The notes under the pieces: generated by a model
The model's input: the letters and a program-made list of their open reading frames with translations, nothing else
Databases searched by the model: none
Told to the model about the DNA's origin: nothing
Translations under genes and position numbers: made by a program
From: a virus
Reading direction: 5' to 3' (one strand)
IMG/VR virus record: IMGVR_UViG_3300044712_000519
Coordinates: 1 to 36,975 of that record
Length of the DNA: 36,975 bases
In this document: positions 1-36,975 of the stretch, one piece after another
Layout: each line of letters starts with the position of its first letter
Position numbering within the stretch: position 1 is the first letter of the stretch

Positions 1-127
1 TCATCTAGCCACTTCTCCCTATCATTACTCACCTCTATCATCTGTCATGGTGTGAATTGTGGTATTGCATTTTCAGATAGTACTTCTCAGCATTTTAGGC
101 AATGTATCGGGTCGCTTTTTTTAACAA
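1..127. repeat. Terminal direct repeat, left copy
   Basis: These 127 bases are identical to 36849-36975. The repeat lies inside a coding sequence that continues in frame across the join, so it most simply marks a circular (or circularly permuted) genome of about 36,848 bp assembled with an overlap. A true packaged terminal repeat of exactly this length is less likely but cannot be excluded from sequence alone. Confidence 0.95.
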
Positions 128-1298: not shown

Positions 1299-1496
1299 TT
1301 ACTTTAATCTAATTCCTTTTCTCATTAATCATTTTTCTAGTCTTTCCTTGTAAAACTCAAAGTCTTTGTCCTTTAATACATCACGTTTATTACGAGTAAA
1401 CCAGTTTTGTATATTAGTACGTTTAGTAGTAGTGAGTTTAGCGAGTTCATCATATCGATACTTAGCTTCGTGTCTTAGTTTGTTGTATTTGTTCAT
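1299..1496 (-). CDS. Small HTH-like DNA-binding protein (65 aa)
   Basis: ATG at 1494-1496, TAA at 1299-1301; it overlaps the end of the RusA gene by 22 bases. It is highly basic, and the stretch RYDELAKLTTTKRTNIQNW (residues 14-32) resembles a helix-turn-helix in which TTTKRTNIQNW would be the recognition part. It is the last gene before promoter P1. One glycine is a TGA codon. A regulator is possible, but the HTH assignment rests on pattern only. Confidence 0.7.
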
Positions 1497-1840
1497 AGTG
1501 GGTTTATTATTAGTTCTATACGAGGGTTTTGTTTGTCTATTTCCATTATTTCTACTGTGGCTTTTTTTATTTGAGAATCGTCTTCAAATATTATTCCTGT
1601 CAGAGCGTCCATTGAGAGCTTGTGGTAATTATCCCAGTCTCTCACTCTTCTATCTCAAAAGAATATCTTTATTTCAATTTCTAATGTGTCTAGGAGAGGT
1701 TTTCACTTGTATTGTAGTCTAGTTTGTAGTATGTAACTATTCTTGAGCTCCTTAGCCTCTTTTTTCATAAATCGTATCTTTCAGGACTGAGCGTATGCCC
1801 ATTGTGTAGAGCGAGGATTTCATTTGAGAGTTATGTGCAT
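1475..1840 (-). CDS. rusA: RusA-family Holliday junction resolvase (121 aa)
   Basis: ATG at 1838-1840, TAA at 1475-1477. The length matches the RusA family (about 120 aa). The family signature is clear: RDWDNYHKLSMDALTG followed by IIFEDDSQI, giving the acidic residues that bind Mg2+ and cut four-way junctions, and the basic N-terminus MHITLKGNPRSTQ. RusA resolves branched DNA made during replication and recombination, which fits its place downstream of an HNH-like nuclease and of the Rad52-type annealing gene. Five of its six glycines are TGA codons, so without code 25 the gene is unreadable. It follows the upstream gene by a TAA-T-ATG junction. Confidence 0.92.
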
Positions 1841-1841
1841 A

Positions 1842-2273
1842 TTAGTTTGGATAATCGACTTTTAGTATTTGCTTTGTGTGTTCGTAGTGATGCCATGCTC
1901 TTGATACGATTTCTATGTTGCTGGGGTCTAGCCTATGCTCTTCTCATCGTGATTTTGGTATCGTGTGGCTAAAGTTGGTAGGCGTGAGGTCTTCTAATGC
2001 TATCAGTTTATAGCATTCTTCTCATCATACTGCTATTCAAGTTATGATTGCTCAATTTACTCTAGAAGTTAATGTCGTATCTCATGGCTTTGCTATATGT
2101 TTTGCTGAAACACACCCATTCGATAATGCTCTCTCTAGTGCTATCCTCTTAAACAACTCAAATTCTCATGTCGCTCCTTTCTTTTCCTTTGTAGTTGTCT
2201 TTCATACTTGGCGTATTGACAGCTTTTCTGCTATTGCTTTCTTCTTAGCTCTTTTTTCTTGGAGTGTTTTCAT
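1842..2273 (-). CDS. HNH-like endonuclease (143 aa)
   Basis: ATG at 2271-2273, TAA at 1842-1844. The C-terminal half has NFSHTIPKSRGEEH, DPSNIEIV and a later HHYEH, which fit the H...N...H pattern of HNH nucleases seen in phage recombination genes, although the usual zinc cysteines are reduced. The N-terminus is strongly basic. Eight of ten glycines are TGA. It lies immediately before RusA and is joined by a TAA-T-ATG junction, suggesting a shared role in processing DNA intermediates. The specific subfamily was not identified. Confidence 0.75.
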
Positions 2274-14458: not shown

Positions 14459-17400
14459 TTAAGTTAGTTTGCGACCTAGCATATAAGTTCCTGCTTTGAT
14501 TGTTGATGTGCGCCCAGATGCAGGAGAAACATTAGCTGTTTGTAGTTTTACATCAGTAGCACCAGTAGTTACAATTTGAAAGTTAAGATAAAATGGTCTT
14601 GCCAAGTTATCACCATCATTGATTGTTCTACCATTACCACCAGCACTACCAAGAACAGTTTGTTGACTACCTATATTTCAGTTAGCTATTCCTTGCGCAC
14701 CTGCCGAATCTGGTCATCTATATATCCACAATCATCCGCTACCACTATTCCAAGCATTACCACCAGAAGACTGTATTTCTATTTTTATATCTCCTGTCGC
14801 ATTACTCGCAACTGATGAACCCATAATCTCAAAGTACCAACATTCACCAGCAGCAACAGGGCAAGACATTCAAGTTACATCAGTAAATGTAGAACTATTT
14901 GTTACTGTGAAGTCAGCAGTCATTTTATAAGCAAAATCCCAGTAGCCTCCAGAGATTGATTGCCAAGTTGCAGCAGTCGAAGAAGTAGCTACGAGTGCTT
15001 GACCAGAACTAGGAGCAGTTGCACCACTTACTGAAACAGTTGTAGTCGCTGATTTTAAACCAAGAGCAGCAGTAGCTTGACCAGCTGTATAACTTGCGCC
15101 TGTTCCTGTTATATTAGTCCCTACGAGAGCTGATGGAGTACCGAGGTCAGGAGTAACAAGAGCAGGACTAGTAGCACGAACAGGAGCACCAGAACCAGTA
15201 GCCGTTGTCCATACTGGGAGAGCAGAAGCACCACCACCAACGAGTATTTCTGTTGTTGCTCCATTAGCTAGAGTTTGTTGTGCTCCTGTTGCTGTTGTAC
15301 CTGTTGCTATGAGTGAATAAGCGGTAGTACCTGTTGACCGACCAGTACCACCATCAGTAACAGGGACATCAGCACCACCAGCACGGTAAACTATATTCCC
15401 TTCTACGTTAATATCACCAGCAGAAGCACGAGTAATAGTGGTGTCTGTGTTTTGTACTTCGAGACCTGTGTTTACTGTTGCAGTTGTGAAAGTACCAGTT
15501 GTAGGTGTAGTTGCCCCTACTGTACCGTTTATGTTTATAGAGGCTGTACCTGTGAGGTTAGTAACAGTTCAAGAAGAAGGTGTGCCTAGAGCACCACCAT
15601 TCATAAGAACATTAACACCTTCTACTGCTAATTGTCATGCGCTAGCTCTTGAAAGTGTGGTATCTGTTGCCCCAGCTCATAATTCAATAGTCGTTGCAGA
15701 CATTATTGTAGAGCCGAGGTTTGAAGTGCTAGAATTATATGTAAGACCTGTATTTGTTTTAGGTCATAAATCACCAGTTGCAGCAGTAAAGAAAGATGGG
15801 AAACAAGTAGTATCTGTTGCTTCATTCGCTACTGTAATAGCTGTTGGAGTTCATCCACCAGTTGAAGCAATAGTAACTGTACCAGCACTTGCAGTACCTC
15901 CAGTCGTTAAAGTAATATTAGAACCCTCGATAAGTTGGACACTTCCACCGCTCGCAGAAAGAGTAACAGTATGAGAAGTAGCGTCACTTGTGTTTGTAAT
16001 AGTTTGATTTCCAGAGTTTGTGCCACTTGTGTTTCCAATAACTGTAAGTTGAGCATCCGTGACGTATCGTTTATTAGATGAGTCAGCTATATCCGCAGTT
16101 GTAGCATCAGCACCAGCAGTTACGAGACCTTTCGTATCGTATGTGATTTTAGTTTTAGTTGCTCCAGTAATAGGCGCATTCCCGTCTACTTTATCATTTA
16201 TATTTTCTATAAAATCAAAGTACCCACCTGTGTTATTCCATACTGGAATTTGCCCTGATGTAGTGAGAGGAGTACCGTTTACGTCTGAAAGAGACTCTAA
16301 AGTGGTAGCATGCTGGATTCTTACAAGAATACTACCAGTACCGAGAGCACCAACAACTCCAACTTGACCTACAATATCTGAAAAATGAGGCACAGCAGGT
16401 TCTACATTTGTGAGAACTCAAGGATTAGTTTTTGAAACATAGAGAATATCTCCCTCAGCCCAAGTAGTTCACCAAATACCAGAACCAGAGTAATTAGTTT
16501 TGATATGCCGAACATACCCCATCGTAGTGATGAAACCGTCAGAATTATTTGCTATGTCCTGAGTCGTTACACCTGCTACGTTTCCTGATGGTGCTGTATT
16601 CCCTTGTGCTGGTGAGATGAGGGGTCTATTCCCAAGACTTCCACTGTAATATACAGGAGTACCATTATCAATAGTTACACCAGTTGTGTTTCGGACTTTA
16701 GCGAACATCTCCTGACCTATTTGGAGTGTTACATCTCCTGCACTCATACCTAAGTCGAGCGTTCAGTCAGTATCATTCCATTGCATGAGACCTTCTGCGT
16801 TTGTGATAGGTATAGCTCATGTGTCGAATTGTGTCCACGGTGTTGTTACACCAGCGACTTCTATATCGTTTGTTGTTACGTTCCCTTCGTCAGTTGCAGA
16901 TTGTAGGTCTACTACTACCGCACCTGTATCTCCGTTCACACTCAGAACTTGGTCTGTGTAGTCAGCTTTGAACCAGTTATTTAAAAATGTAGTTGTTGAT
17001 GCGTTGTCAGTAATAGCGATGATTCTATCGTTCACAACAAATGAAACACCGTCTACTGTTCCTGCTACCGAAACGATATAAGACCAGCCAGCTTGTGCTA
17101 CTCCCCCTCAAGGGAAAGTTCCAGCAGAAGCATCCCAAAGACCTTTTAATATAACTGCTTGGTCTAGTTGTGAAAGGGTAGTGTTAATCGTATCAATCTG
17201 TGTCTGAGCGTTGCTTGTCAGAGAGTTAATATACTGAAATTCTGTATTATTTACGCTTCCATCTGCTATTTTAGTTGCATCTATTCCACTTGAAAGAGTG
17301 GTAGCAAAAGAACCTGTCCCACTACCTGTTACTGCTCCTGTGAGAGTTATAGTTTGGTCTCAAGTATTTGTACCACTCGTGTTTTGAACTACTGTTAATT

Positions 17401-18082
17401 GAGCGTTTGTTAAGTGATTATACTGTCCAGTAGTACCGCCTTGTAGTCCTCATAGTAAGTTATGGTCAAGTTCACTTTCATCGACAGCTACAATAGGATT
17501 AGCTGGGTCAGTAGCATCTACGTCTATTCCGTGTCATGCTACAACAGAGTCTACTGTACCGCCACCGCCTCCACCTGTACCAAATTCTAAACCAGTTTCA
17601 TCTGCTTTCACTTTTACTATTTTTCACGCTTGACCTACATAAGAGCTAGGAGCATCTGTAAGATGTAGAAAGTCGTGTACTCCTGTACTCATTACAGGTC
17701 AGATACCACTTGTAAGATACATTTTCTTACCATCTTTCTTTATGAATTTTCCTCCTCTATCTTCTCCTATTTCGATAGAATCTACCTCATGTTTAGGCAT
17801 TCTCTTTATAAGTTTCTCTAGGAGTTTATCCTCTGGGAATACTTCTTTAATGAGTGCTTTTAATTCAGATTTAGTAGGAGTTTTACCGTTTTTACCGTTG
17901 AGACCGTTTTTACCATTGGTTCAGTTCGTACCGTCTTTCCCATTAAGACCTTTTATATTCTTTTCAATTTCTACGGTCTTTATTTCTTTTACATAGACTT
18001 CTTTAACCTCGATTTCCTCCTCTGGGATTTCATCGAGTTCTATTTCCTCAGTTTCTAAATCTTTGAGTTCAATTTCTTCCAT
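14459..18082 (-). CDS. Long tail fibre/receptor-binding protein (1207 aa)
   Basis: ATG at 18080-18082, TAA at 14459-14461. An acidic N-terminus is followed by a short collagen-like Gly-x-y run (residues about 45-67, GLNGKDGTNGTNGKNG), one of whose glycines is TGA. The remaining 1100 residues are low-complexity Thr/Ser/Gly/Ala beta-repeats such as TNLTGTASININGTVG and GTPSSGTVTNLTG, typical of phage fibres. The last 150 or so residues (DFTVTNSSTFTDVTGMS...GTYMLGRKLT) match the C-terminus of the short fibre at 18356-19249, so both probably present the same kind of tip. Codon frame was confirmed at several points along the gene. Confidence 0.9.
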
Positions 18083-18355: not shown

Positions 18356-19249
18356 TTATACAGAGAGTTTTCTTGCAAGCATATAAGCACCAGCCTTGAG
18401 TGTACTAGTTCTACCACCAGAAGCAGCGTTATTAGCTATTTGGAATTTAATATTTCCACTTCATGTTATTGATACAGTTATTTCAATTTCAATAGGTCTT
18501 ATAGTACCATCTCCACTGTTTACAGCAGCTCAACTTGTTGTAGAAGTAGTTGAAGGCATAACAGCGAGAGCAGAAGTAAAAGTTCCTGTATCGCCATAAT
18601 AGAATGTTCTTTTTACTCAAGAAGTGTCCCAAGTACCAGTAGTGATAAGGTCTGCTTTTATGTCTCCTGTTGTATCGTTTGCTGTTGTAAACCCTTGTAT
18701 CTGGACATACCATCTTTCACCAGCTACTACTGGAAGACTAAAACCTGTTACATCAGTAAGAGTTGAACTGTTTGTAACTACGAAGTCAGAAGCGAGTTGA
18801 GAGCTGAAATCCCAGAAGCCAGAAGTATCGTTTTGCCATGTAGCTGTTGTTGCACTTGTAGCCTTCAATACTTGATTTGCTACTGGAGCACTAGCAGCAC
18901 TCACATCTACTATTCCTGTTGCACTTTTGAGGGAGTTAGCAGAACCAGTTGTATTTTGGTTGAGTGTAGGGAAAGTACAGTTTGTAAGTGTACCACTTGT
19001 AGGAGTACCGAGAGCTGGAGTTACAAGAGCAGGGCTAGTAAATGTACCTGTACTTACTGTCGGGTTTGTAATCGTAGGAGCTGTTAATGTCTTATTCGTT
19101 ATAGTCTGAGTACCAAGACGACTCACGATAGCACCGTCTACATCGTCTGGAAGTTGAGCATTAAGAGCATCAAAGTTATCATTTAGGTCGTTCATTGCCT
19201 CAACGTTTGTCGTTGATTCTGTCAGGTCTATGATAGTTGCTTTAGTCAT
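18356..19249 (-). CDS. Short tail fibre-like protein (297 aa)
   Basis: ATG at 19247-19249, TAA at 18356-18358. The N-terminus (MTKATIIDLTESTTNVEAMN) is a short coiled segment, followed by Thr-rich repeats (TLTAPTITNPTVSTGTFTSP) common in phage fibres, then a C-terminal domain (DFVVTNSSTLTDVTGFSL, GERWYVQIQGFTTANDTTGD, GAYMLARKLSV) shared with the long fibre. One TGA (TSGVKR). The duplication of the tip domain suggests two fibres for one receptor or a recombining pair. Confidence 0.85.
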
Positions 19250-19774: not shown

Positions 19775-21280
19775 TTATTGCTGTATTGCTTTGTTTATCG
19801 TGTTTGTCACTCAAGATAGAAGATACTTAGCTCATTTTCTTACTTTACCCTGATTTTTAACCACTCATTTAACGGTGGTTTCTTTTTGTATTTGGTCTAT
19901 GAGTCTTTTCATAAATTGAGGTAATTGTTTTTCAACTTCTGCTGGGTTTATTTTACCACTTCTTAGCATTTTGAGAGGGCTTTTCTTTACAATTACATCA
20001 GCCACATCAATAGCTTGCTGTACTCACGGTAATTCAGTAACTTTTTCCACTAAAGCCCCTGCTCTTCAAGGTGTAGTTGCTCGTCATGCTGTCGAAGTAG
20101 CACCCTGTATCTGCTCTCTGATAAGATTTTTAACAGATTGTAAAGCTCAATATCGAGCATTAGCTTTTGAAATATCTACACCTGTATCTTTTTTGACGAG
20201 CTTTTCTGTAAGTGTTTTTAATGCAGAACGAACGTCATCAAGTTGGTCTACATTAAATCACGCTTTCTCTACTCACTTTTGAGTGAATATTTGATTAGCG
20301 TTTGTATGGAGTGTTTTTAATTTTGTTATTTCTTGTGCTGAAAGACCTTTTCATTTATTGAGTTTTATAAGACCTTTGAGAGTTTCTTGTACTGCTCTTG
20401 CTTCATCGCCTACTACATTTGTGTATGCCTCTTGAAGACCACGCAGAGCATCATCTATATTAGCATTCTTCACTCGTGAAGTAGATTTTGCAAGAACTGG
20501 CAATACTTTTTCTTTATAGATAGAGTTGGCTGTATCATCGAATACTCACTCTAATTGAGAAAATGTTTTTACATTAGCAAGTTTCTTTTGGACACTCGGA
20601 GGAGCATATTTAAGAACATACTTAAATCATTCTTTAGCCTTTGGAAATAATTTAGCCTGTCATGCACTTGGTTGTAATATGTTAGCTATAATATCATCAC
20701 TCTTCACTAATCTTGTGAGTGGTTTTGCTAAAGGAGCAACGAGTTTACCAGCTCATGCGAGTAATCATTCACCTACTGGAGCGGTAGCTATTGCCCCTCC
20801 TGCAAATTGCCCCACCTTAGAAGGTATTGATTCAGCATTTAATCATGCTTTAGCTCATATTGATTCTATTGCTCTTGCTGGAACTTCTGCCATCTGTTGC
20901 ATAGATTTTCCAAAATCACTTTTGTATCATGGAACGATTGCTTCAGGTATCTTTCCAAGAGTAACATCTAATGCACCTCAAACTACTCTGGCAGTAGAAC
21001 CAACAGCACGTGCTACACCTGTTGGTAATCACTGTACTACCTCTCCATATCATTTTGCCAGACCTTTCATAGCTTCCACGCCTTTTCATAGAGTAGACTT
21101 ATAAACATCAGCCATACTTTTAGGTTTGACTGGTGCTTCTTGAATATTACCTTCTATATCAATTTCTCATGCTCTGAATTTAGGGAGAATCTCAGCCTCA
21201 AATCTAGCCCTATCGTATCAGTTAGATTTTGCTGTTTGTGCGAGTTGTGCTTCTTCTTGTGTATAAGAGGTTATTGCCAT
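19775..21280 (-). CDS. Probable virion protein (501 aa)
   Basis: ATG at 21278-21280 overlaps the end of the 866-aa gene by ten bases; TAA at 19775-19777. Ala/Lys-rich, mostly helical (for example SAQEITKLKTLHTNANQIFT, LVKSDDIIANILQPSA), with a Gly/Ala-rich possible amphipathic region near residues 100-190. It carries far more TGA codons (over 20) than the neighbouring structural genes. Position and composition suggest an internal virion or ejection protein like those of short-tailed phages; no domain was recognised. Confidence 0.75.
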
Positions 21281-23871
21281 ATAGACGAAGGATTAACAGT
21301 AGTAGTTTGTGTCTTATTCTGAGTGAATATATTGTTCTTGCTTTCTGTTTGTGTCTGTGTTTGTTTTTCTCACCAAATAGTGTTAAAAAGTTCATCACCG
21401 TAAGCATTCTGTAGGTAAGAGTTCTTTAACGCCTTGCGAGAATCTAGGAGACCATCAAGACCAGCTACATTTAAATCATAAGACTTACCAGCAGAAGGGA
21501 AGATAGAGTCATAGAACTTTTCTTCAAATTCTGTAAGAGCAGCACCAGACCTAGCACGTCTAAGAGAATCGAGCTGGTCTCGAAGTGTTACACCGAGTTT
21601 AGCTATTTCGGGGTCTCATACTTTACCAAACTTATTAGCAATATCTTCGTACTTACCCTTTAGAAGACCTGTATTAACGCCTTTAGCTTTCAGGTTATCA
21701 AGAGTCTGTCTTACTTTTTCAAGTGAAGAAACAAGTGTTCTTGTTTGTTGGTATGCTGTCTTTTCTGGTGCTCCTTCGATATTATTAGAAGCAAGATTTT
21801 CAAGTTTAGTTCTCACTTGTGCTTCATTACCAGAAGATATTAAATCCTGTAATACCTTCTGCTCTTGTTTTTGGAGAGTAGGCTTATCGAAAGCGAGAAC
21901 ATTAAACGCTTGCAAGTAAGGGTCTGATTTCTGTGATTGTTGTTGTCCAAGTATTCTATACATTCAAGGACTTTCTCTTTTTAATTGAGACATTTGTACA
22001 CTTCTAAGTTGTTCTGGTGATAGGTCAGATACTTTTGTTCCTGCATTTATTCCTACCTCAGAAGATATTTGATTTCAATATCATTTTTCTGTGCTTCCAG
22101 TATTCCATCTGTTAAGAGCTTGCCCGAGTGTTAAGTTAGTATAACTTGGAGAAGACCAAAGGAGGTCATACGCTTTAAATCCTTCTTCGATAGTAGGGAA
22201 AGAAAAATAAGAGCCTCATTCGTTCGCTGGTCTATTAGTTCCTTTTTCAAAAGCAATACCAGCCTGTTGTAGACGATTTGCAAAAGAATCATTAAATGTA
22301 ATTCCAGCTGGATTGTTATTCTTTAAGCTAGCTTCACGAGGAAATTGACTAGCGTATTGTCTTAGGTCTCCACCTCCTCCAAAAGTACCTCATTCAGGTA
22401 CTTGTTTAAGCTGTCATGCTTCTAGGTAGTAATCTCAAGCCTTAAGACCTGTCTTTACTTCACTAGGTTGATTTCTTACCGCAGTAGCATATTCATCGAG
22501 TAAATCATCATAAGTTTCACCGACTGGAGTAACACCAAGTTTAGCGATAGCTTCCTTGAGGTTATCGAGGTGTTGTTGTTCGAGTCTAGTGAGAGTTTCC
22601 TTGTCTTTTTTATCAGTTCTTGCGATTTCATCAGCCAGCTTCTTATCTGCCCTTGCAAAGTCTTCTTGTCTGATTTCTGCAGCATTTGTAACTCAGTAAA
22701 GGTCAAATAGTCTTTGTTCTTGCTTCTGTTGATTTCCTACCTCCCAGTCTATTTCTGATTTAGCTTCATCGAGGTAAGAATTATAGAGAGCCACATTTTG
22801 AGAAAGGGTGTCGTTAACTTCGTAAATCTGGTCATCTATTCCTTTTGAAAGAGCAGAATATCCTGCCATAATCATAGAAATAGGAAGAGAGCTATTCTTC
22901 TTTTTGTAGTCTTCAAATATATCTCGTTTGGCTCTTTGAAGTTCTCGAAGTTGCGTCTGAGCGTTTACTATTTCGCCTCTTGCTACTTCCATGTCTGGAT
23001 AATTAGCATACACACGAGCTTTTATATCCCCGTAACTTTCAGCGTTAGCATCGAGTTTAGCAAGTTTAGTTAAAAGGTTTGTAAGAGCTTTATTTTGTAC
23101 TTGTGTATCCTCTCATTTTACGATAGAATCATTAGCTACTTGAATAGTATTCGCTGTATCGGTAATCGTACTCTTACGAGCCATATCTTTAGCCTTAGCG
23201 ACTAAATCAGGATTGATAGAAGTGATTTGTTCTAATTCACGATTTGAGACGTTACCGTTTACGATATTCTGAGCGAGTTGAGTGTCAGTCATCTGGGCAT
23301 ACTTTCGATATTTATCGAGATTAGCCTTAGCGACAGCAGTCATACCGTTTTCTGCACTAAATTTACCACCTGATTGTAGTATTTTGAGAGCTTCTTCTTT
23401 ATTAGTTGGTGCATATTCAGGAACTCCATTGACCATTGAATACTTAACTCCAGTGGCTTGAGCTTGTTTTTCTGCATCAGTTAATACTGGCGGAACTTCT
23501 ACTGGTTTTGTCTCGACAGGTTTTACAGGCTCTACAACAGGTGTTTTTACTTCTTCGGTAGTAACTGGTGCTGGTGGAGGCTGAACAGGTGTTACAGGTG
23601 GCTTTTTAGCGTCAATTTTAGCTTGTAGAGTTGGAGATACGTATGGTTTTACTCAAGTAACACTCTCTGGAAGTTGGTATTCAGGTAAAGGAGTAGTTAC
23701 AGGTTTTGTGGCTGGAAGAGGAGCAACAGGCGCAACAGTTGGAACTGGTACAGGTGCTGGAGCTGGTTGCGCTCACTGAATAGGATTCGTTACAACAGTA
23801 TTTGTAATCGTAGGATTTGGTATTCCTCATATATTTCTTCCGAGTGGGTCTACAAGCTGTGTTTTAACCAT
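21271..23871 (-). CDS. Large virion protein with probable peptidoglycan-hydrolase domain (866 aa)
   Basis: ATG at 23869-23871, TAA at 21271-21273. The first 150 residues are a Pro/Val/Thr-rich linker (PAPAPVPVPTVAPVAP). The middle is long coiled coil (VARGEIVNAQTQLRELQRAK). Around residues 480-570 is SLKNNNPAGITFNDSF, then SYFSFPTIEEGFKAYDLL and LTLGQALNRWN, the signature of a lytic domain found in phage virion proteins (NNNPGN-x, F-x-S-x-E-x-G, ALxRW). The rest is helical. Such proteins enter with the genome and locally open the cell wall. Few TGA codons for its length. Confidence 0.8.
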
Positions 23872-23872
23872 A

Positions 23873-24100
23873 TTATTGTTCGATAGGGATTAATACTTTA
23901 ATTCATTTATAAAAGGCGACTATATGAGCATTTGGTGTTACTGTTGTTGTTTCTATTCCTACTACTTTTAGACCATCTATTCGCATCGTTCCAAACTTGT
24001 CATACGCTTCAAATTGATTTAGTGTACCAATACTTTTTGGCTTGCTAATATCTAACTTCGGTAGTTCTTGTTTTTTAGGCTTTGACGATTCAGAGGTCAT
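23873..24100 (-). CDS. Hypothetical virion-region protein (75 aa)
   Basis: ATG at 24098-24100 overlaps the preceding gene by 26 bases; TAA at 23873-23875. A disordered Lys/Pro N-terminus is followed by a beta-rich domain (FGTMRIDGLKVVGIETTTVT). One TGA near the end (YKGIKV). Probably a small virion component by location. Confidence 0.72.
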
Positions 24101-25754
24101 AGTTGAAATTAAATATTTGAGGTGTTGATGTACCTGTTGTTGTTAGCTCTACAAACCAAGATATACATTTGAAACCTCTAATTGGGTTGTTACCTCGATA
24201 CTTCTTGTACTCGTTCGTTCCTTGAGTGGTGTTTGTGATAGTGTCATAGAGTATTTCAGTACCACTATTATCTAGTATATATGAAATTTTAATAGTTGTA
24301 TTTTCTGGCACACGGCATCATACTTTTAATTCTAATACTTCTTTTTCTGCACTCATATCAGCTCCATCGTCAGTACGAATAAACATCTTTCCACTCGGCT
24401 GGTAGCTTGTAGGAGTGTCGATAGTAATGTCATCGTAGTAATCTATACCAAATACTCCGTCTTCGTCTTCATAAGTGTAGAAGAAACCGTTTTTAGTAGC
24501 ATTACGATAGAGACAGCCGATACGTTTAAGTGATTTTCCTGCGCTGTTCTTTGAAACAACTACGCTCCAAGCATCTGGAGCACCTGCCACAGTATGACCA
24601 TAAGCATAAATCATACCTACATCATCCTTATTCGATATACAATAAACGACATCATTAATCCTCGCCCAGTTGTAATTCGTGAATCCGTAAATACCGATAA
24701 GGTAGAAAGTAGAGCCGTGATTCCCGAAAGCTACGTCAATATTGTTGTGATAGCGTGATTTTGCGATGAGCTGTTGAGCATCAGCACCAAAGCCATAGTG
24801 TTTGTAAACGTAGACACAGTTGTAAGTAGCAGAAGATGGTGAAGCAGTACCATTTGCGTAGGTGTAAGTATTTACATCACCAGCAACAAGAATATCAGTG
24901 TTATTCTTATTTACTCCGTGAAGGATTTTAGAAGAGCGTTCTACTTGGAGCTGTTTAGTACCATCATTCGCTACACCAGCCAATACTGTGACAGCAGAAA
25001 GCTCAGTAGAGAGCCTATTAGGAGCAGAACTAGCAGACCACACACTATCAGAGTGAACTGAGGAGAAAGTCACGTCTCATGGTTGGCTGATTCCTTGTCT
25101 ATAAGTTGCCAGAGTAGCATATCATGGTCAGAATGGTCAGCTCACGTCTATTCCTCCGTCTTCCGAAGTGACTGCTATATTCCATTGGTCTTGTGAGTCC
25201 CCAAAAAATATACTATCTCCTATTTGATAGAAAGGTCTACTAGCACCAACACTTGCAAAGTTACCGTTATTCATTTCGTAGGTGTAATCTTCCCAATTAT
25301 CAGTATAGGCGTTGTCATCACGAAACCATGTAGGATTCGCTGGAGTTGTGACAGTGAAAGGTATAAATATACCCTCATTGTAATCCCAAAAAGTGGCGTT
25401 ACTGCCTGATGGGATAAGTTCAAAAGCTCTCCAGTGTCCGTTGTTTGATGTATTTGCTGGTCGCAGAACGCTTCCCTGATAGCGCATAGTTCCCTCAGCA
25501 TCTATAATATCTTTATTCTCAAGAGCAAACCAAATATCCCTTTCATTAGTAACGGTGTTAGCGTTGTAGCTGTTATTGCCGATAATATAAACCATTCATG
25601 GAAGAGCTGTTTTATAGTTCGTAGGTTTGACCGCTAATTGAACCCATCGGGGGTCTCGGTAAATATCCAAGTTCTCAGAATACACAAATTGACCTTCTCC
25701 TAAAAGGTACTCATCGTTTCACATTCCACCATTAAAAGAATTTATATTAGTCAT
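24075..25754 (-). CDS. Probable tail (nozzle/hub-like) protein (559 aa)
   Basis: ATG at 25752-25754, TAA at 24075-24077. Begins MTNINSFNGGMGNDEYLLGE and is beta-strand rich throughout (GDSIFFGDSQDQWNIAV, GFGADAQQLIAKSRYHNN, STFYLIGIYGFTNYNWARI), like beta-propeller or tail-nozzle proteins of short-tailed phages. TGA codons are clustered at a few points (GPFGPGY, KVGCR). It overlaps the upstream gene by 13 bases. The assignment is by context and fold impression only. Confidence 0.7.
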
Positions 25755-26509
25755 TCTGGTTGTCCGTAAGGGCTAAAAATGGAGCGGTATTGTTCGTCTG
25801 GGTATTTAGCGTAGAAAGGTCATGTAGTTCTATCGCCTAAATCGTAGAGGGCTTTAGTTTCGAGACGTTCGTATTCAGCAGTTTCAGCATTAGCCTCATT
25901 AATCTTGCCCTGAAATCTATAAATATAAGGGATAAGCCCTTGAACGAGTACAGAAGAGTATTCCGAAGTGATACCCATTCCTGTTTCGTCTGTATCAGAT
26001 GTGTAGTCTACAATCTTTCTAATACCTGTTAGCTTGATTCCATTAGTAATTGCAACAGTAGGAAGAGGTGCGATGAAGATAGAATTATCAGCGATTATAT
26101 AAAGGGGTTTATTCGCTGGTTGATTAGCTTCGTACCACTCCCACTCTCTTTCGAGTGATGTACGAGTAACAAGAGTACATTTTGTGTATTCTAGTTTAGA
26201 AGTGTTAGCGTAGAGTGTATTATCATACGCTACATAAACAGATTCTATTTTCTTAGTACCTGCTCTATCAGTAGCTACTTCGAGCATAGGATACTCAGAT
26301 TGCCCTACAACACTGTTAGTTGTCCATTGTTGCCAACGGAAATCCTCACCAACAGCAGTTACGATGCCAGACCAGAACTTGTCTTTTACTTTGTTGAGCC
26401 AACGCAAACAAGTAGCTTGACCAATAGCATTACTCCCCCCGATTTGGTCGAGGGTAGTGTGTGAAAGTTCAAGTGCTTCTGTTATGACGGTTAGGGGTGT
26501 ATAAGCCAT
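25742..26509 (-). CDS. Probable head-tail adaptor/connector protein (255 aa)
   Basis: ATG at 26507-26509, TAA at 25742-25744. Starts MAYTPLTVITEALELSHTT and has CLRWLNKVKDKFWS, QQWTTNSVVGQSEYPM and GLIPYIYRFQGKINEA, resembling connector-type proteins that follow the capsid gene in podoviruses. Two TGA codons only, near the C-terminus. Located two genes after the capsid. Family not certain. Confidence 0.7.
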
Positions 26510-26762: not shown

Positions 26763-27950
26763 TTATTCAGCAGCTTGGAGAATAACAGGAACGAAGTAAA
26801 GACGGTCAGCACCTTCTGTGAAGGTTTTAACACCGAATTTGCCCCATGTTGTATACTTCATAGCAAGACCAGTACCCTCACGGATTGCGAGAGAGATATT
26901 CTTCTGGAGTACCATGTCGATAGCCTTTCTCTGCATTACGATGGTCTTAACAGAGAATGCGCCCCATTTATCAGCAGCATCTGTGAGAGTCTGAGAAACA
27001 GGTCGGTAACCACGGAGTGATGTAATCACGAGAGTAGTACCAACAACTGTTGCAGAGATACCAGCGAGCTTAGCACGATTTGCTTTTGTTACTTCAAAGT
27101 AAGCAGTAGCAGAACCGGCACCAGCAGCATATCCGTTAGTGTTGTTTACAGCAGCAGCCAAGAGAGTAAGAGTAGCAGCAGCACTAGCTCCAATGTCGAT
27201 TTGACCAGCAGAAGCAGGAGTAGCCTTGAATGTCCAAGTTACACCAGCGATTGTTACTGTGTCATCAGCAGTAGGATTTGTAGCTACGTTGAGGATAGCA
27301 GTACCAGTGAGGTTTGGAGTAACATAGAGTTTAGTTCCGAGGAATGAACCCATGTAACCACGTTTGTAAGATTCATCAGCTACTTGGAAAGTATTACCGA
27401 TTGCACCTTGACCGATTTTCTGGAGAGTGAAAGGGTCAATAACAGTACAAAGTTCTTTCTCATCTACACCAGCATTCTGGAGGTTAGCAACAGCATCACC
27501 GTAAACTTTAACTACGAATGTAGCATCAGTAGAAACAGATGAGATTGTAACAGCAGAAGGAGTTGTGTAAGAAGAGACAGCAGCTTCGAAGAATTTACCT
27601 TCGATATACTGACGCATACGGAAAGCGTTGTTTTTAGCTTGGTCGCCAAGAACATCGTAACCGTTTTCGATTTCATCCACAGGGTCATATTGGAAAGTGA
27701 TTTGTGGGATGTTGTCTACTGTCATTGTTTCGTTTGTGTACTCTACATCAGACTCAGTTTGAGCTGTGTATTTAGTATACTGAGAAACATTGTTGTAAAC
27801 TGGGCGTGGGTAGTTAATTGTAGTACCGTTGCCGAATGAAGCGCGAAGCTCCATATTTGCCAAGTCCATTGCAATAAGTGACTCTTGAAGGAGTGCTTGC
27901 ACTGTCTTGGTGTATTTCTGTTGATTTAAGACAGATACGCTATTAGCCAT
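26763..27950 (-). CDS. Major capsid protein (395 aa)
   Basis: ATG at 27948-27950 (MANSVSVLNQQKYTKTVQAL), TAA at 26763-26765. The frame is open a little further upstream, but that part overlaps the scaffold gene. N-arm, then NYPRPVYNNVSQYTKYTAQT and DNIPQITFQYDPVDEIENGYD, as in HK97-fold coat proteins of the P22-like kind. Residues about 217-327 form an Ala/Thr/Gly-rich beta domain (TIAGVTWTFKATPASAGQID) that interrupts the fold, a likely surface insertion domain. The C-terminus resumes the core (VMQRKAIDMVLQKNISLAIR). None of its 29 glycines is TGA, unlike neighbouring genes. It follows a scaffold gene and precedes a terminator. Confidence 0.88.
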   Translation of the reverse strand: MANSVSVLNQQKYTKTVQALLQESLIAMDLANMELRASFGNGTTINYPRPVYNNVSQYTKYTAQTESDVEYTNETMTVDNIPQITFQYDPVDEIENGYDVLGDQAKNNAFRMRQYIEGKFFEAAVSSYTTPSAVTISSVSTDATFVVKVYGDAVANLQNAGVDEKELCTVIDPFTLQKIGQGAIGNTFQVADESYKRGYMGSFLGTKLYVTPNLTGTAILNVATNPTADDTVTIAGVTWTFKATPASAGQIDIGASAAATLTLLAAAVNNTNGYAAGAGSATAYFEVTKANRAKLAGISATVVGTTLVITSLRGYRPVSQTLTDAADKWGAFSVKTIVMQRKAIDMVLQKNISLAIREGTGLAMKYTTWGKFGVKTFTEGADRLYFVPVILQAAE

Positions 27951-27991: not shown

Positions 27992-28546
27992 TTATTCTTT
28001 CACGTTTCCAGTAGCTCTTGCCCATTTAAGGTATTCGCCATCTGGTAACTTGAGAGCTTCCTCTTGAGAGAGACTTGATATATCCTTAGGCTTAGAAGTG
28101 CTTCTAAGTGAAAGGTTGCGCTTGGTCTCACTAACAGGCTTATCCGCTTTAGCTAGTTTGAAAGCATCATCGAAATCCATATCAGGATATTTTTTCAGAT
28201 TAGCTCTAATTTCATCTTCGTAGTCCTTTGCGCTTGGATTCTCTAAAAAGAGAACTTTCAGCTCGATAGGAGCGTACTGTGTAGAAACAGGCTCATCTGT
28301 ATCCTCATCGTCAGAATCGTCTTCGTCATCAGACTCAGAATCATCTGAGGAAGATTTGTATTTAGCGAGTTCAGCCTTGAGAGCTTTATTCTCACCTTTC
28401 AACTTCTTCCAGTTCGACTTATTTTTCTTAGCTGGGGTGTTGTCTTCCCCTTCGCTGTTTAGACTTTCGTCAGAGTCAGCAGACTCAACGTTTTCAGTTT
28501 CATCGAGGTTAGCATTAACATCGACTAGTTCTTCTTCGTTATCCAT
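27992..28546 (-). CDS. Scaffold-like protein (184 aa)
   Basis: ATG at 28544-28546, TAA at 27992-27994. Extremely acidic first half with Asp/Glu/Ser runs (SSSDDSESDDEDDSDDED), a coiled segment (KKLKGENKALKAELAKY), and a C-terminal helix with basic residues. This composition and position just before the capsid gene are typical of capsid scaffolding proteins, which guide procapsid assembly and then leave. No TGA codon. Confidence 0.82.
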   Translation of the reverse strand: MDNEEELVDVNANLDETENVESADSDESLNSEGEDNTPAKKNKSNWKKLKGENKALKAELAKYKSSSDDSESDDEDDSDDEDTDEPVSTQYAPIELKVLFLENPSAKDYEDEIRANLKKYPDMDFDDAFKLAKADKPVSETKRNLSLRSTSKPKDISSLSQEEALKLPDGEYLKWARATGNVKE

Positions 28547-29173: not shown

Positions 29174-31033
29174 TTAAATGCTTTGAAGCTGTGAGTTTTG
29201 CTGTGCCATATTAGCACCTGTCATAGCACTTTGAATATTTTTAGCTGATTGGTCTGCTTCTACCATTCCTTCATTCAATTTAGGTTGAGTTGCTTGGATT
29301 CTAGTATAAGCGTCTAAATGTGCTTGCATGTGTAGAGACTTAGCGACTGTATCGAGACAGCCATCATTTATTAAAAGATGAGTCAGGTGGTCATCTGTTT
29401 CATTGATTGGTAAACTTATACCTTGATTCAGTAAGATGTTCTCTTGATAGGCTATAATCTCCTGAGGAGACTGAGGCACAAAAACATTAGCCTTTTGAGA
29501 TTCTATACCATTTGATTCGAGAACTTCACGAGCATGTAAATCCTGTGCAATCTTTGGTCGTTCAATGCCTTGAAGAATAGCGAACGTATTGTTAAGAGCT
29601 GTTCTATCCTTGAGCATGTCTTTTTCTTTCTCACTAGAAGAGATGACTTTAACTGAGACTTCTACATAACCGAGGAATTGTTCACGTGTGAGTTGCTGAT
29701 TAACAAATCCCATACCTGTTTTAATCTTCGCTATCTTCTTATCTCCAGCCTTGAAATTCTCTAGGTAAGAACGAAGCCAAAGACGGAGAAAGTCACGGTC
29801 AAACCATGATTGTATTTTATCATCGAGAGCGATACTTACATCTGTGCTATTCTGTACCATTTCTTGCACTCCTAAAGTCTGTCGAGTTTCTGGTGTTGTT
29901 CCATTGGCTACATTCCCACCGATTCCACTTGTAGAGCGAGAAAGATTAGTCTGGAGCATGTCAGTAATAGTCTCACTGTTGTCACTTCGTACATCTTTAG
30001 GGAAAGGAGCAATAGCGTTATTTATGTTCTCTCCGTCATCAGGATTTGTAGGTATAAACTTATTAAATCCCATATCTAGGTCAGCAGGTCTTTTGATAAG
30101 TCTCGTATTGTAAAGATACATTGGATAGAGTTCTGCTTTATCCTTTTTGTATCTGAGGTTCTGGATAAGGACAATAGCCATTTGGATATTCTTGCATACT
30201 GTTGCAAGTCTTTGACCAAATATAGTAGAACGGTCAGGTCGCCAGTTGTTGATAAGAACAGGGAAAGGAATTAAGTTATTCTCTTTCTTCTCTTCCTTAG
30301 TAACAGGTTCAAGTTTCTCCATGTATAGAATCACTGAATCGTTGTTACCAGTTACTACCAAATACTTCTCACCTTCGTAAGTAGTAAAGTGATAGTAAAC
30401 ATCGTAAACAGGATTGTTACTATCGTTAGAAATATCGAGGACATTGTTTGCGCTCTTTAAGCTCGCTTCATTAGCTGTTATCTTTTTTGTAAATTGGAGG
30501 GCTTCTTTGTCATAATCATCAGGAAGTTGGTCTTTTCTCTTCTGGGTCTCGAAGCCTATAAAGTTAAATATCTTACTCTGATAATCTCCATCAGGGTCAG
30601 GAATAACACACTGAGGTTTTACGACTTCAAAGATAGGACGTTTAGCGACTCAATCCCATCATGTGAGAGCAGCGATACCAGCACCGTATCTGTAAGTATC
30701 GAATTTCATTTGAAATCTCATGTTCTCAAAATCCTCACTTTCTAGGTCTGTGTCTTTTACTGCGTTCAAGTTATCAACAAAGTATTTTTGCATCTGGTTA
30801 AATTCTTTCGCTTCAAAGGTACTAATTGGTCTTTCAGTATAAGTTCGTGCCATGTAAGCCCATACAACGTTAAAGAAAGTTGTATCACCGATACTTTCCT
30901 TCTCTTTACGCTGGTCGAAGAAGATTAAGTCTTCCTCTATGAAATCGTTTCTAATTGCAATGACTGAATTGAGTCATCTTATATGTTCATCTCTCACTTG
31001 AGAGAGTAAATCAGGATTGGAATATTTAGGCAT
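29174..31033 (-). CDS. Portal protein (619 aa)
   Basis: ATG at 31031-31033, TAA at 29174-29176. The length, position between terminase and capsid genes, and motifs WAYMARTYTERPISTFEAKE, RYGAGIAALTGWDG, VIPDPDGDYQS and NNWRPDRSTIFGQRLA fit podovirus-type portal proteins, which form the dodecameric DNA channel. The C-terminal part is Gln-rich and helical. Only three TGA codons, all in the first third (IRGLN, TGWDG), and each sits at a plausible glycine. Confidence 0.85.
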
Positions 31034-31066: not shown

Positions 31067-32398
31067 CTAGTAGGGGGACATTTCCACATCTGTTATCAAA
31101 GTCTCTTCCTCTTCCATGTCTTCTGGCAACATTCACATATCGTCTATCTCGAAACTTTCCATTATTTCATCGTTTCATTGTATGACTTCTCAAACAGGTC
31201 ATCTATTCTTGTGGAAATTATCAAGCAGACCAGAGAGTAAATCCACAGCATCATCGTTTACTTCTTTCGTAGGAAAGGCAATAATCTGGTCTACTAAAGT
31301 GTTAATCCTTTTATGATTCTTTGGTAAATAAACTCTATTAGCTCTAAAGTGTGGAACGTGAGGAGTAAAGTGAGTAACCTTATCACTTGGGTATTTTAGC
31401 TCACGAATAGGGAGGGAAATTCAATACTCCTCTTTGGCAAGTTTCTTTACCCAGAATCAAAATCATTGGTTCGCTTTCTCATCGTAGGTAAACTTCGTCA
31501 CTTTACTTTCCCATTTTTGATACATAACAATAGATGCTCTTGCTTGGGCTTCTACGTCTTGCTTCTCAAGTATAAAGTCTAATAGGTAGAAGTTCTTATC
31601 CAGTCCTTCTCCGATTACTCCAATAGCTGAATAATCGCTCGTTTCCTTTCCTGTGTGAGTTGTATCAGTGTGCATAAAGACTTCTACGAATTGAGTTACA
31701 TCTACATCATCATAGAAACGTAAATCTTCATAGTTAATCATTGAGTTCTCGTATACATCAACAAACTCAGCCAGATATTCTTGCTTCCAGATATAACTAG
31801 GAACTTGTTCTTTGATTTTATCCAAGTCCTCAGCTTTCCAGTAAGGAGAAGCGTAACAAGAGTAGTTAAATGTTTTCCATTCTTCGTCTATTCTCTCCAT
31901 TTGAGACAACTCAAAATACTTCTGGTCTGTTTTGCCCTTAGGCGTTCAAATAATCTTCACCTGAGCTTTCTTACACATGGGCTGTATTGTACGCTCCCAG
32001 AGTCATTCTTTCTTCAATATGATACCAGCTTCGTTTAAAACAACGTAATCATAAGAGAATCATTCTAAGTTCTCTGGTCTTTCAGCACTCCCGAAGTCTA
32101 TCATGCTTCCATTAGCAAACGTGATTATGTATTTCTGATTGTCTACTTTTACACTAGACCACAAATCACCGAGAATAGTTCTAAAGTAACGGTCAATATA
32201 CTTCCCGATATTCCCTTGCACAGTATCACACCATAATCACCGAGAATTAGGGTTTATCATCATCATTAAGCAAAGCCATTGTGTAGCTCACCAAGTCTTT
32301 CCAGATTGTCGTCAAGCTGGTATTACTGTGTATTTATGTGTATCTGCAAAAGCCTCCCGAATAAACGGAGAGAAATTAAGATTCACTTCCTTTGTCAT
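31067..32398 (-). CDS. terL: Terminase large subunit (443 aa)
   Basis: ATG at 32396-32398, TAG at 31067-31069. Walker A AGRQSGKT (residues 28-35), Walker B YDYVVLNEAG (116-125, with Asn where Asp is usual before the catalytic Glu123), coupling motif GTPKG (151-155), and nuclease acids around HTDTTHTG (D245), TSDYSA (D255) and NDDAVD (382-386). The enzyme pumps DNA into the procapsid and cuts it. Thirteen glycines are TGA, including the invariant one in Walker A and the first of GTPKG, so the gene only makes sense in code 25. It overlaps the small subunit gene by 23 bases. Confidence 0.95.
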
Positions 32399-36604: not shown

Positions 36605-36975
36605 TTAGAGGGGTTTCTTATTAGCTTTTATGAGTTGGTTTACTGCATTAGTGAGGAGTTCTATTTGCTCATAAGGAGTATTCTGTGTCATGCCAGTTTG
36701 ATTATTTATTACTGTCCATTTTGGTAGCAACTCTATATCTTCTTGGGGCTGTGGTCTGGCGTATTTTCTTATCTCATAGAAGTTCATATTGTTTTTTTCT
36801 AAAGAAACATGATATTCTCAATCTCTAAATGCAATAAATTTTCTTGGTTCATCTAGCCACTTCTCCCTATCATTACTCACCTCTATCATCTGTCATGGTG
36901 TGAATTGTGGTATTGCATTTTCAGATAGTACTTCTCAGCATTTTAGGCAATGTATCGGGTCGCTTTTTTTAACAA
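36605..36975 (-). CDS. Hypothetical protein, C-terminal part (gene continues across the circular join)
   Basis: TAA at 36605-36607. This is the end of the 288-aa gene whose start lies at 621-623 on the circle; bases 36849-36975 duplicate 1-127. The visible C-terminal part runs CLKCGEVLSE, then EPRKFIAFRDGEYHVSLEKN and ends TNAVNQLIKANKKPL. The frame passes through the join without a shift, which supports circularity. Function unknown. Confidence 0.8.
36849..36975. repeat. Terminal direct repeat, right copy
   Basis: Exact copy of 1-127. See left copy: assembly overlap of a circular genome is the simplest reading. Confidence 0.95.

What the first reader, a model, noticed from the sequence alone, without database searches (positions are those of the whole stretch)
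26763..27950. TGA-Gly is avoided in the capsid gene but favoured in early genes
I count 0 TGA among 29 glycines in the capsid protein and none in the scaffold; the portal has three in 619 codons. By contrast RusA has 5 of 6, the HNH-like protein at 1842-2273 has 8 of 10, and TerL has 13. The 501-aa virion gene (19775-21280) is TGA-rich, so this is not simply early versus late. It may reflect a limited supply of UGA-reading tRNA-Gly for the most highly expressed proteins, or mixed ancestry of the genes.
Basis: seen in the sequence. Interest (0 to 1): 0.7.

Follow-up and report, generated by a model that had tools for sequence, protein, structure and literature searches.

The report
UGA-glycine avoided in abundant phage proteins
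Viruses of bacteria that read the stop word UGA as glycine use it freely in most genes but strip it from the gene for their main shell protein, as their hosts partly do in ribosome genes, which suggests that the reassigned word is a poor one when a protein must be made in bulk.

Summary
In this 37-kb code-25 (TGA=Gly) phage the capsid gene has 0 TGA among 29 glycines, against 225/689 elsewhere (Fisher 1.8e-5); genes differ far more than chance (chi2 191, df 51, 0 of 5000 shuffles).

It is not a quirk of one phage. Across 19 code-25 phage contigs, almost all from Gracilibacteria MAGs, the HMM-identified major capsid protein (MCP) is TGA-depleted relative to its neighbours (Mantel-Haenszel OR 0.16, z -18). 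It is the most depleted gene in 11 of 19 contigs (1.8 expected, P 2e-7), in three or more MCP families. TGA also falls against GGA alone (OR 0.19), so third-base preference is not the cause. Glycine is the most shifted amino acid; ATA-Ile is second, and the two move together (rho 0.73). Low-copy TerL is TGA-rich; tail-tube candidates are depleted. Ribosomal-protein genes of 27 host genomes show the same direction (OR 0.48), and codon shifts of MCPs and ribosomal proteins correlate (rho 0.63).

Best reading: translational selection, with UGA-Gly least suitable in the highest-output genes. Limited tRNA-Gly(UCA) is plausible but unproven: each of three hosts checked has one gene, depleted or not. 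Mixed ancestry does not explain it. I found no earlier report for bacteria or phages.

The parts
26763..27950 (-). Major capsid protein, 395 aa; TGA 0/29 Gly, GGT 22, ATA 0/21 Ile
   Evidence: (phrog_267 major head protein 3.1e-11)
27992..28546 (-). Scaffold-like protein; TGA 0/4 (too few glycines to judge)
   Evidence: homologous to L084 6142-6414
29174..31033 (-). Portal; TGA 3/28
   Evidence: 26% identity to the 642-aa gene next to TerL in L084; no PHROG hit
31067..32398 (-). Terminase large subunit; TGA 13/26 (low-copy control gene)
   Evidence: (phrog_38 1.6e-31)
24075..25754 (-). 559-aa tail/virion protein; TGA 8/51, GGT 20
25742..26509 (-). 255-aa tail protein; TGA 2/17
   Evidence: (phrog_10775 tail 2e-5)
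14459..18082 (-). 1207-aa fibre-like protein; TGA 20/163, GGT 85
18356..19249 (-). 297-aa fibre-like protein; TGA 3/24
19775..21280 (-). 501-aa virion-region gene; TGA-rich, 24/47
21271..23871 (-). 866-aa virion-region gene; TGA 14/57
1475..1840 (-). RusA; TGA 5/6
   Evidence: (PF05866 5e-14)
1842..2273 (-).

Best explanation
The capsid gene is under translational selection, and in this recoded system the reassigned codon UGA (Gly) is the least suitable codon for a protein made in very large amounts. SHOWN: the avoidance recurs in MCPs of unrelated code-25 phages, is specific to TGA rather than to A-ending codons, goes with avoidance of ATA and preference for C-ending Phe/Tyr/Asn codons, and points the same way as the codon shifts of host ribosomal-protein genes. 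INFERRED: UGA is decoded more slowly or less reliably than GGN. Each of three host genomes checked has one dedicated tRNA-Gly(UCA), while GGT/GGC and GGA/GGG have tRNA-Gly(GCC) and (UCC). Its level may be held down because its U34 could also read UGG (Trp). In low-copy proteins (terminase, tape measure, early enzymes) mutation toward AT lets TGA accumulate; in MCP and tail-tube genes selection restores GGT or GGA.
For: 19 code-25 phage contigs: MCP against same-strand genes MH OR 0.164, z -18.1; TGA against GGA OR 0.187, z -12.9; MCP ranks first in 11/19 (1.84 expected, P 1.7e-7); both SU10 (OR 0.10) and HK97 (OR 0.26) groups. MCPs assigned by HMM. Logistic model with contig effects and over-dispersion: MCP effect z -9.3 after adjusting for A-ending use, GC3 and length. 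Gly Z 40, next Ile Z 24, other amino acids below 10. Low-copy control: MCP against TerL OR 0.076; TerL against other genes OR 1.5. Tail-tube candidates OR 0.11; their best fold matches are mostly tail-tube proteins, on a low-confidence model. Hosts: ribosomal proteins against background in 27 genomes OR 0.48; codon shifts of MCP and ribosomal proteins rho 0.63, 0.60 without Gly. TGA and ATA avoidance covary across contigs, rho 0.73.
Against: Three BD1-5 HK97 MCPs (L031-L033) show no depletion, and L080, L081 and L090 little. Ribosomal genes of seven hosts (G003, G075, G122, G212, G069, G100, G138) are not depleted, and in others TGA only falls from about 0.7 to 0.5. tRNA gene copy number does not separate depleted from non-depleted hosts. 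No expression, tRNA-abundance or ribosome-profiling data exist here; protein abundance is inferred from virion roles. The window's own host is unknown, so the ribosomal comparison uses other code-25 genomes.
Confidence: 0.8

Rival explanations
1. Mixed ancestry: the capsid gene came recently from a standard-code phage and has not yet gained TGA codons.
For: The window is mosaic: TerL 62% identical to L081, other head genes like L084; the nearest MCP relative found (L001, 35% identity) is in a standard-code contig.
Against: Depletion recurs in MCPs of SU10, HK97, phrog_267 and phrog_1357 groups, each beside TGA-rich portal or terminase genes. In L034 and L072 third-position usage of the MCP equals its neighbours' while TGA is 2/29 and 0/31. 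It would need many separate single-gene replacements, and would not explain host ribosomal genes.
Confidence: 0.06
2. General third-base or composition bias: the capsid prefers T-ending over A-ending codons, and TGA falls merely because it ends in A.
For: In the window TGA share correlates with A-ending use elsewhere (rho 0.62).
Against: TGA is depleted against GGA, which shares its third base (OR 0.19). In L072 the MCP uses 20 GGA and 0 TGA. The MCP effect survives adjustment (z -9.3).
Confidence: 0.05
3. Selection against mis-decoding: UGA occasionally yields Trp or termination, so it is removed where errors are costly, rather than because it is slow.
For: Proteomics of a BD1-5 bacterium found rare UGA peptides read as Trp and other residues (PMC4032931). 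Errors cost more in abundant proteins.
Against: In ribosomal proteins of code-25 hosts, conserved and variable Gly sites use TGA equally (OR 0.97 in depleted hosts, z -0.3). The test is indirect and was not done on MCPs.
Confidence: 0.25
4. Timing switch as in phages that recode stops in standard-code hosts: UGA content gates early against late genes.
For: TGA is unevenly distributed along the genome.
Against: Late genes TerL and virion501, and tape-measure-sized genes in relatives (72/83, 87/92), are TGA-rich. The code-25 hosts already translate UGA; no tRNA gene was found in the window.
Confidence: 0.03

Closest known systems
Reassigned codons depleted in highly expressed genes of Blastocrithidia (PMC12153298) and of an oligohymenophorean ciliate (PMC10553269)
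   Same: A codon reassigned from stop is used widely but reduced in ribosomal or highly expressed genes.
   Different: Those are eukaryotic nuclear codes. Here UGA=Gly in bacteria and, most strongly, in their phages' capsid genes.
Selection for translational efficiency strongest in the major capsid gene of gene transfer agents (PMC9765227)
   Same: The MCP, the highest-copy virion protein, shows the strongest codon adaptation.
   Different: Standard code; no reassigned codon involved.
Code-25 phages of Gracilibacteria and Absconditabacteria (PMC10746230; RSA-ATP1 in PMC13059738)
   Same: Same kind of phage, dense in in-frame TGA.
   Different: PMC10746230 suggested that dense TGA may be translated more efficiently; MCP and ribosomal data here point the other way. 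Neither text, as searched here, reports a per-gene dependence on expression.
Stop-codon recoding that gates late genes in phages of standard-code hosts (recalled; summarised in PMC10746230)
   Same: Uneven in-frame stop codons among phage genes.
   Different: There recoded codons mark late genes; here the most abundant late products avoid them and the host itself is recoded.

Membership tests
Genetic code 25 (UGA=Gly) phage | TGA aligns with Gly in standard-code homologues | tested here: met
   11 of 20 ungapped TGA sites in TerL are G, none W
Genetic code 25 (UGA=Gly) phage | Relatives in hosts that carry tRNA-Gly(UCA) | tested here: inconclusive
   TerL 62% identical to a contig of Gracilibacteria-class MAG G181. 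One tRNA(UCA) found in each of three other code-25 genomes. The window's own host is unknown
Translational selection in highly expressed genes | High-output genes share a codon bias with host ribosomal proteins | tested here: met
   rho 0.63 over codons, 0.60 without Gly, using code-25 hosts in general
Translational selection in highly expressed genes | Bias scales with measured protein abundance | not testable with these tools
   No expression data; virion copy number used as proxy
Translational selection in highly expressed genes | Preferred codons match abundant tRNAs | tested here: inconclusive
   All three Gly tRNAs single-copy in G046, G075 and G036; abundance unknown
Reassigned codon avoided in highly expressed genes (Blastocrithidia type) | Reassigned codon depleted in ribosomal-protein genes | tested here: met
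   MH OR 0.48 over 27 genomes; seven genomes are exceptions
Reassigned codon avoided in highly expressed genes (Blastocrithidia type) | Effect larger than for other codons | tested here: met
   Gly Z 40 against 24 for the next amino acid in MCPs. In ribosomal proteins AGA-Arg (z +24.6) is as strong as TGA (z -21.9)
Late-gene stop recoding as a switch | Recoded codon concentrated in late structural and lysis genes | tested here: not met
   The capsid has none, while early RusA and late TerL have many

The most novel reading that the evidence does not exclude
After the UGA-to-Gly change, UGA never became a fully competent codon in these bacteria. tRNA-Gly(UCA) is kept scarce or slow, perhaps because it would misread UGG Trp codons, so UGA acts as a built-in brake: hosts and phages set protein output partly by how much UGA-Gly a gene carries, and phages purge it from capsid and tail-tube genes.
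Probability: 0.3. Interest if true: 0.8.

Novelty: new variant of a known kind. Interest (0 to 1): 0.64.

Why it matters
It gives quantitative evidence, in bacteria and their viruses, that a reassigned stop codon can remain second-rate although it is the commonest glycine codon in many of these genomes. It bears against the published suggestion that dense TGA speeds translation in these phages. It also gives a practical marker: in a code-25 phage contig the gene most depleted in TGA is usually the major capsid protein. I picked three by this sign and HMMs then confirmed all three.

Tried and rejected
Direct relatives in viral contigs through TerL and portal: none; through the capsid: one standard-code contig. 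Scans with the MCPs of L034 and L035: none. Capsid in the phage record collection: none. TGA as Trp: rejected. CGA/CGG read as Trp, as in Absconditabacteria: the window reads Arg at 5 of 7 ungapped sites. Third-base bias, composition and gene length as sole cause: rejected. Retention of old GGN codons at conserved sites: no difference between conserved and variable sites. tRNA gene dose as cause: not supported. Structure models of the tail-tube candidates had low confidence (pLDDT 41 and 29), so their identity is suggestive only. Borges et al. 2022 and Campbell et al. 2013 were not held and could not be read.

Full report
OBSERVATION. The window is a virus record with nearly all genes on the minus strand, read in code 25, and no tRNA gene. 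Counting per gene, the capsid gene 26763-27950 has 0 TGA among 29 glycines while the rest of the genome has 225 of 689 (Fisher 1.8e-5). Over 52 genes the TGA share is far more uneven than chance (chi2 191 on 51 df; the largest of 5000 shuffles gave 92). The fibre-like genes (20/163 and 3/24) and the 559-aa tail gene (8/51) are also low; TerL (13/26), the 501-aa virion gene (24/47) and most small genes are high. TGA means Gly: in TerL, standard-code homologues carry Gly at 11 of 20 ungapped TGA sites and never Trp.

RELATED PHAGES. A DNA pattern for a GTPase motif with TGA as its first glycine found Gracilibacteria genomes. Searching these orders for terminase and capsid families, with one viral-contig search, gave code-25 phage contigs. 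In L034, L035 and L036 one gene stood out by low TGA (2/29, 0/44, 6/29); PHROGs and Pfam then identified exactly these as major capsid proteins. The pattern continued in L072 (0/31), L071 (1/27), L079 (9/30 against 0.85), L082 (9/34 against 0.87), L084 (0/26), L085 (5/27), L086 (2/36) and L083 (0/33), all with MCP identity from HMMs. L030 was milder (13/33 against 0.81). L080, L081 and L090 were weak, and L031-L033 showed none.

STATISTICS. Over 19 contigs, including the window, MCP against same-strand genes gives OR 0.164 (z -18.1). Against GGA only, OR 0.187 (z -12.9). The MCP is the lowest-TGA gene in 11 of 19 (1.84 expected, P 1.7e-7). Contigs were collected by terminase or capsid matches, not by TGA, and L070, whose MCP has the same glycine codon counts as that of L072, was left out. 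With contig effects, over-dispersion and adjustment for A-ending use, GC3 and length, the MCP term stays at z -9.3. Compared by amino acid, Gly has Z 40, Ile 24 (ATA avoided), Phe 9, Tyr 8 (C-ending preferred), and Lys, Gln and Pro about zero. TGA and ATA avoidance covary across contigs (rho 0.73), and the contigs without TGA avoidance mostly avoid ATA less too (L033 is an exception).

EXPRESSION AXIS. Terminase, needed in few copies, is TGA-rich against other genes (OR 1.5), and MCP against terminase gives OR 0.076. In L071, L083, L079, L082 and in L072, L036, a second gene is depleted (OR 0.11); it lies a little before the tape-measure-sized gene in L071, L072 and L082. A low-confidence model of the first group (pLDDT 41) finds mostly tail-tube proteins in the PDB, which fits the second most abundant virion protein; this is suggestive, not proof.

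HOSTS. Ribosomal-protein genes around L2, identified by conservation across 30 loci, against random regions of the same genomes: OR 0.48 over 27 code-25 genomes, for example 0.13 against 0.55 (G201), 0.25 against 0.66 (G227), 0.13 against 0.45 (G046). Seven genomes show none or the reverse (G003, G075, G122, G212, G069, G100, G138). Codon shifts of phage MCPs and host ribosomal proteins correlate (rho 0.63; 0.60 without Gly). In ribosomal proteins TGA is among the strongest shifts, with AGA-Arg.

MECHANISM. These facts fit translational selection in which UGA-Gly is the poorest glycine codon. Why it is poor is not settled. Near-complete hosts G046, G075 and G036 each have one tRNA-Gly(UCA), one (UCC) and one (GCC), so gene dose does not explain the difference between depleted and non-depleted hosts; tRNA abundance or intrinsic decoding rate could. 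eLife 2021 (PMC8629427) notes a potential for ambiguous translation through U34 wobble between UGA-Gly and UGG-Trp, a reason to keep this tRNA scarce. The accuracy version (misreading as Trp, seen rarely by proteomics in PMC4032931) predicts less TGA at conserved glycines; ribosomal proteins show no such difference (OR 0.97). I put about 0.55 on speed or supply and 0.25 on accuracy.

ALTERNATIVES. The window is mosaic (TerL 62% identical to L081; portal, scaffold and tail255 like L084), but ancestry cannot explain a depleted MCP beside a TGA-rich portal in several unrelated phages. Third-base bias is excluded as the sole cause by the GGA comparison. A timing switch is excluded by TGA-rich late genes.

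KNOWN WORK. Depletion of reassigned codons in highly expressed genes is reported for Blastocrithidia (PMC12153298) and a ciliate (PMC10553269), and capsid-gene codon adaptation for gene transfer agents (PMC9765227). For code-25 phages, PMC10746230 proposed the opposite, that TGA may aid efficient translation. I found no report of this effect in bacteria or phages in the library searched; subscription papers were not searchable.

LIMITS. Gene calls are mechanical ORFs; contigs are MAG or viral fragments; the window's host is unknown; abundance is inferred from virion roles; two relevant papers could not be read.

Noticed in passing
window 1-127 and 36849-36975: Exact 127-base direct repeat at the two ends, as in a complete, circularly assembled or terminally redundant genome.
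   Followed up: partly
L079:10027-10101 (-): This phage contig encodes its own tRNA with anticodon UCA (U73, CCA end, G1:C72, but U2:A71), beside tRNA-Leu and tRNA-Met; its capsid is still TGA-depleted (9/30 against 0.85). RSA-ATP1 (PMC13059738) is a published phage with such a tRNA.
   Followed up: partly
window 26763-27950 and MCPs of related contigs: The capsid also avoids ATA (0/21 Ile in the window) and prefers C-ending Phe, Tyr and Asn codons.
   Followed up: yes
L087, L088, L089: Terminase-bearing contigs from G155 and G176 of the code-25 order of G004 have almost no in-frame TGA and equal coding density in codes 11 and 25: code-11-compatible phages, or contamination of the MAG.
   Followed up: no
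L043, L103, L107, L108, L110, L111, L112: Seven code-25 hosts show no TGA depletion in ribosomal genes; in G003 TGA is 93% of ribosomal glycines.
   Followed up: partly
L034:9439-10962: A homing endonuclease gene directly after the capsid gene carries 34 TGA of 35 glycines, beside a capsid with 2 of 29.
   Followed up: no
L004 (JAMOPZ010000019.1): A contig labelled Campylobacterales carries the TGA-containing GTPase motif, so it is probably a misbinned Gracilibacteria contig.
   Followed up: no
window 31067-32398: TerL CGA/CGG codons align with Arg (5 of 7 ungapped), so the Absconditabacteria CGA/CGG-to-Trp change does not seem to apply to this phage.
   Followed up: partly
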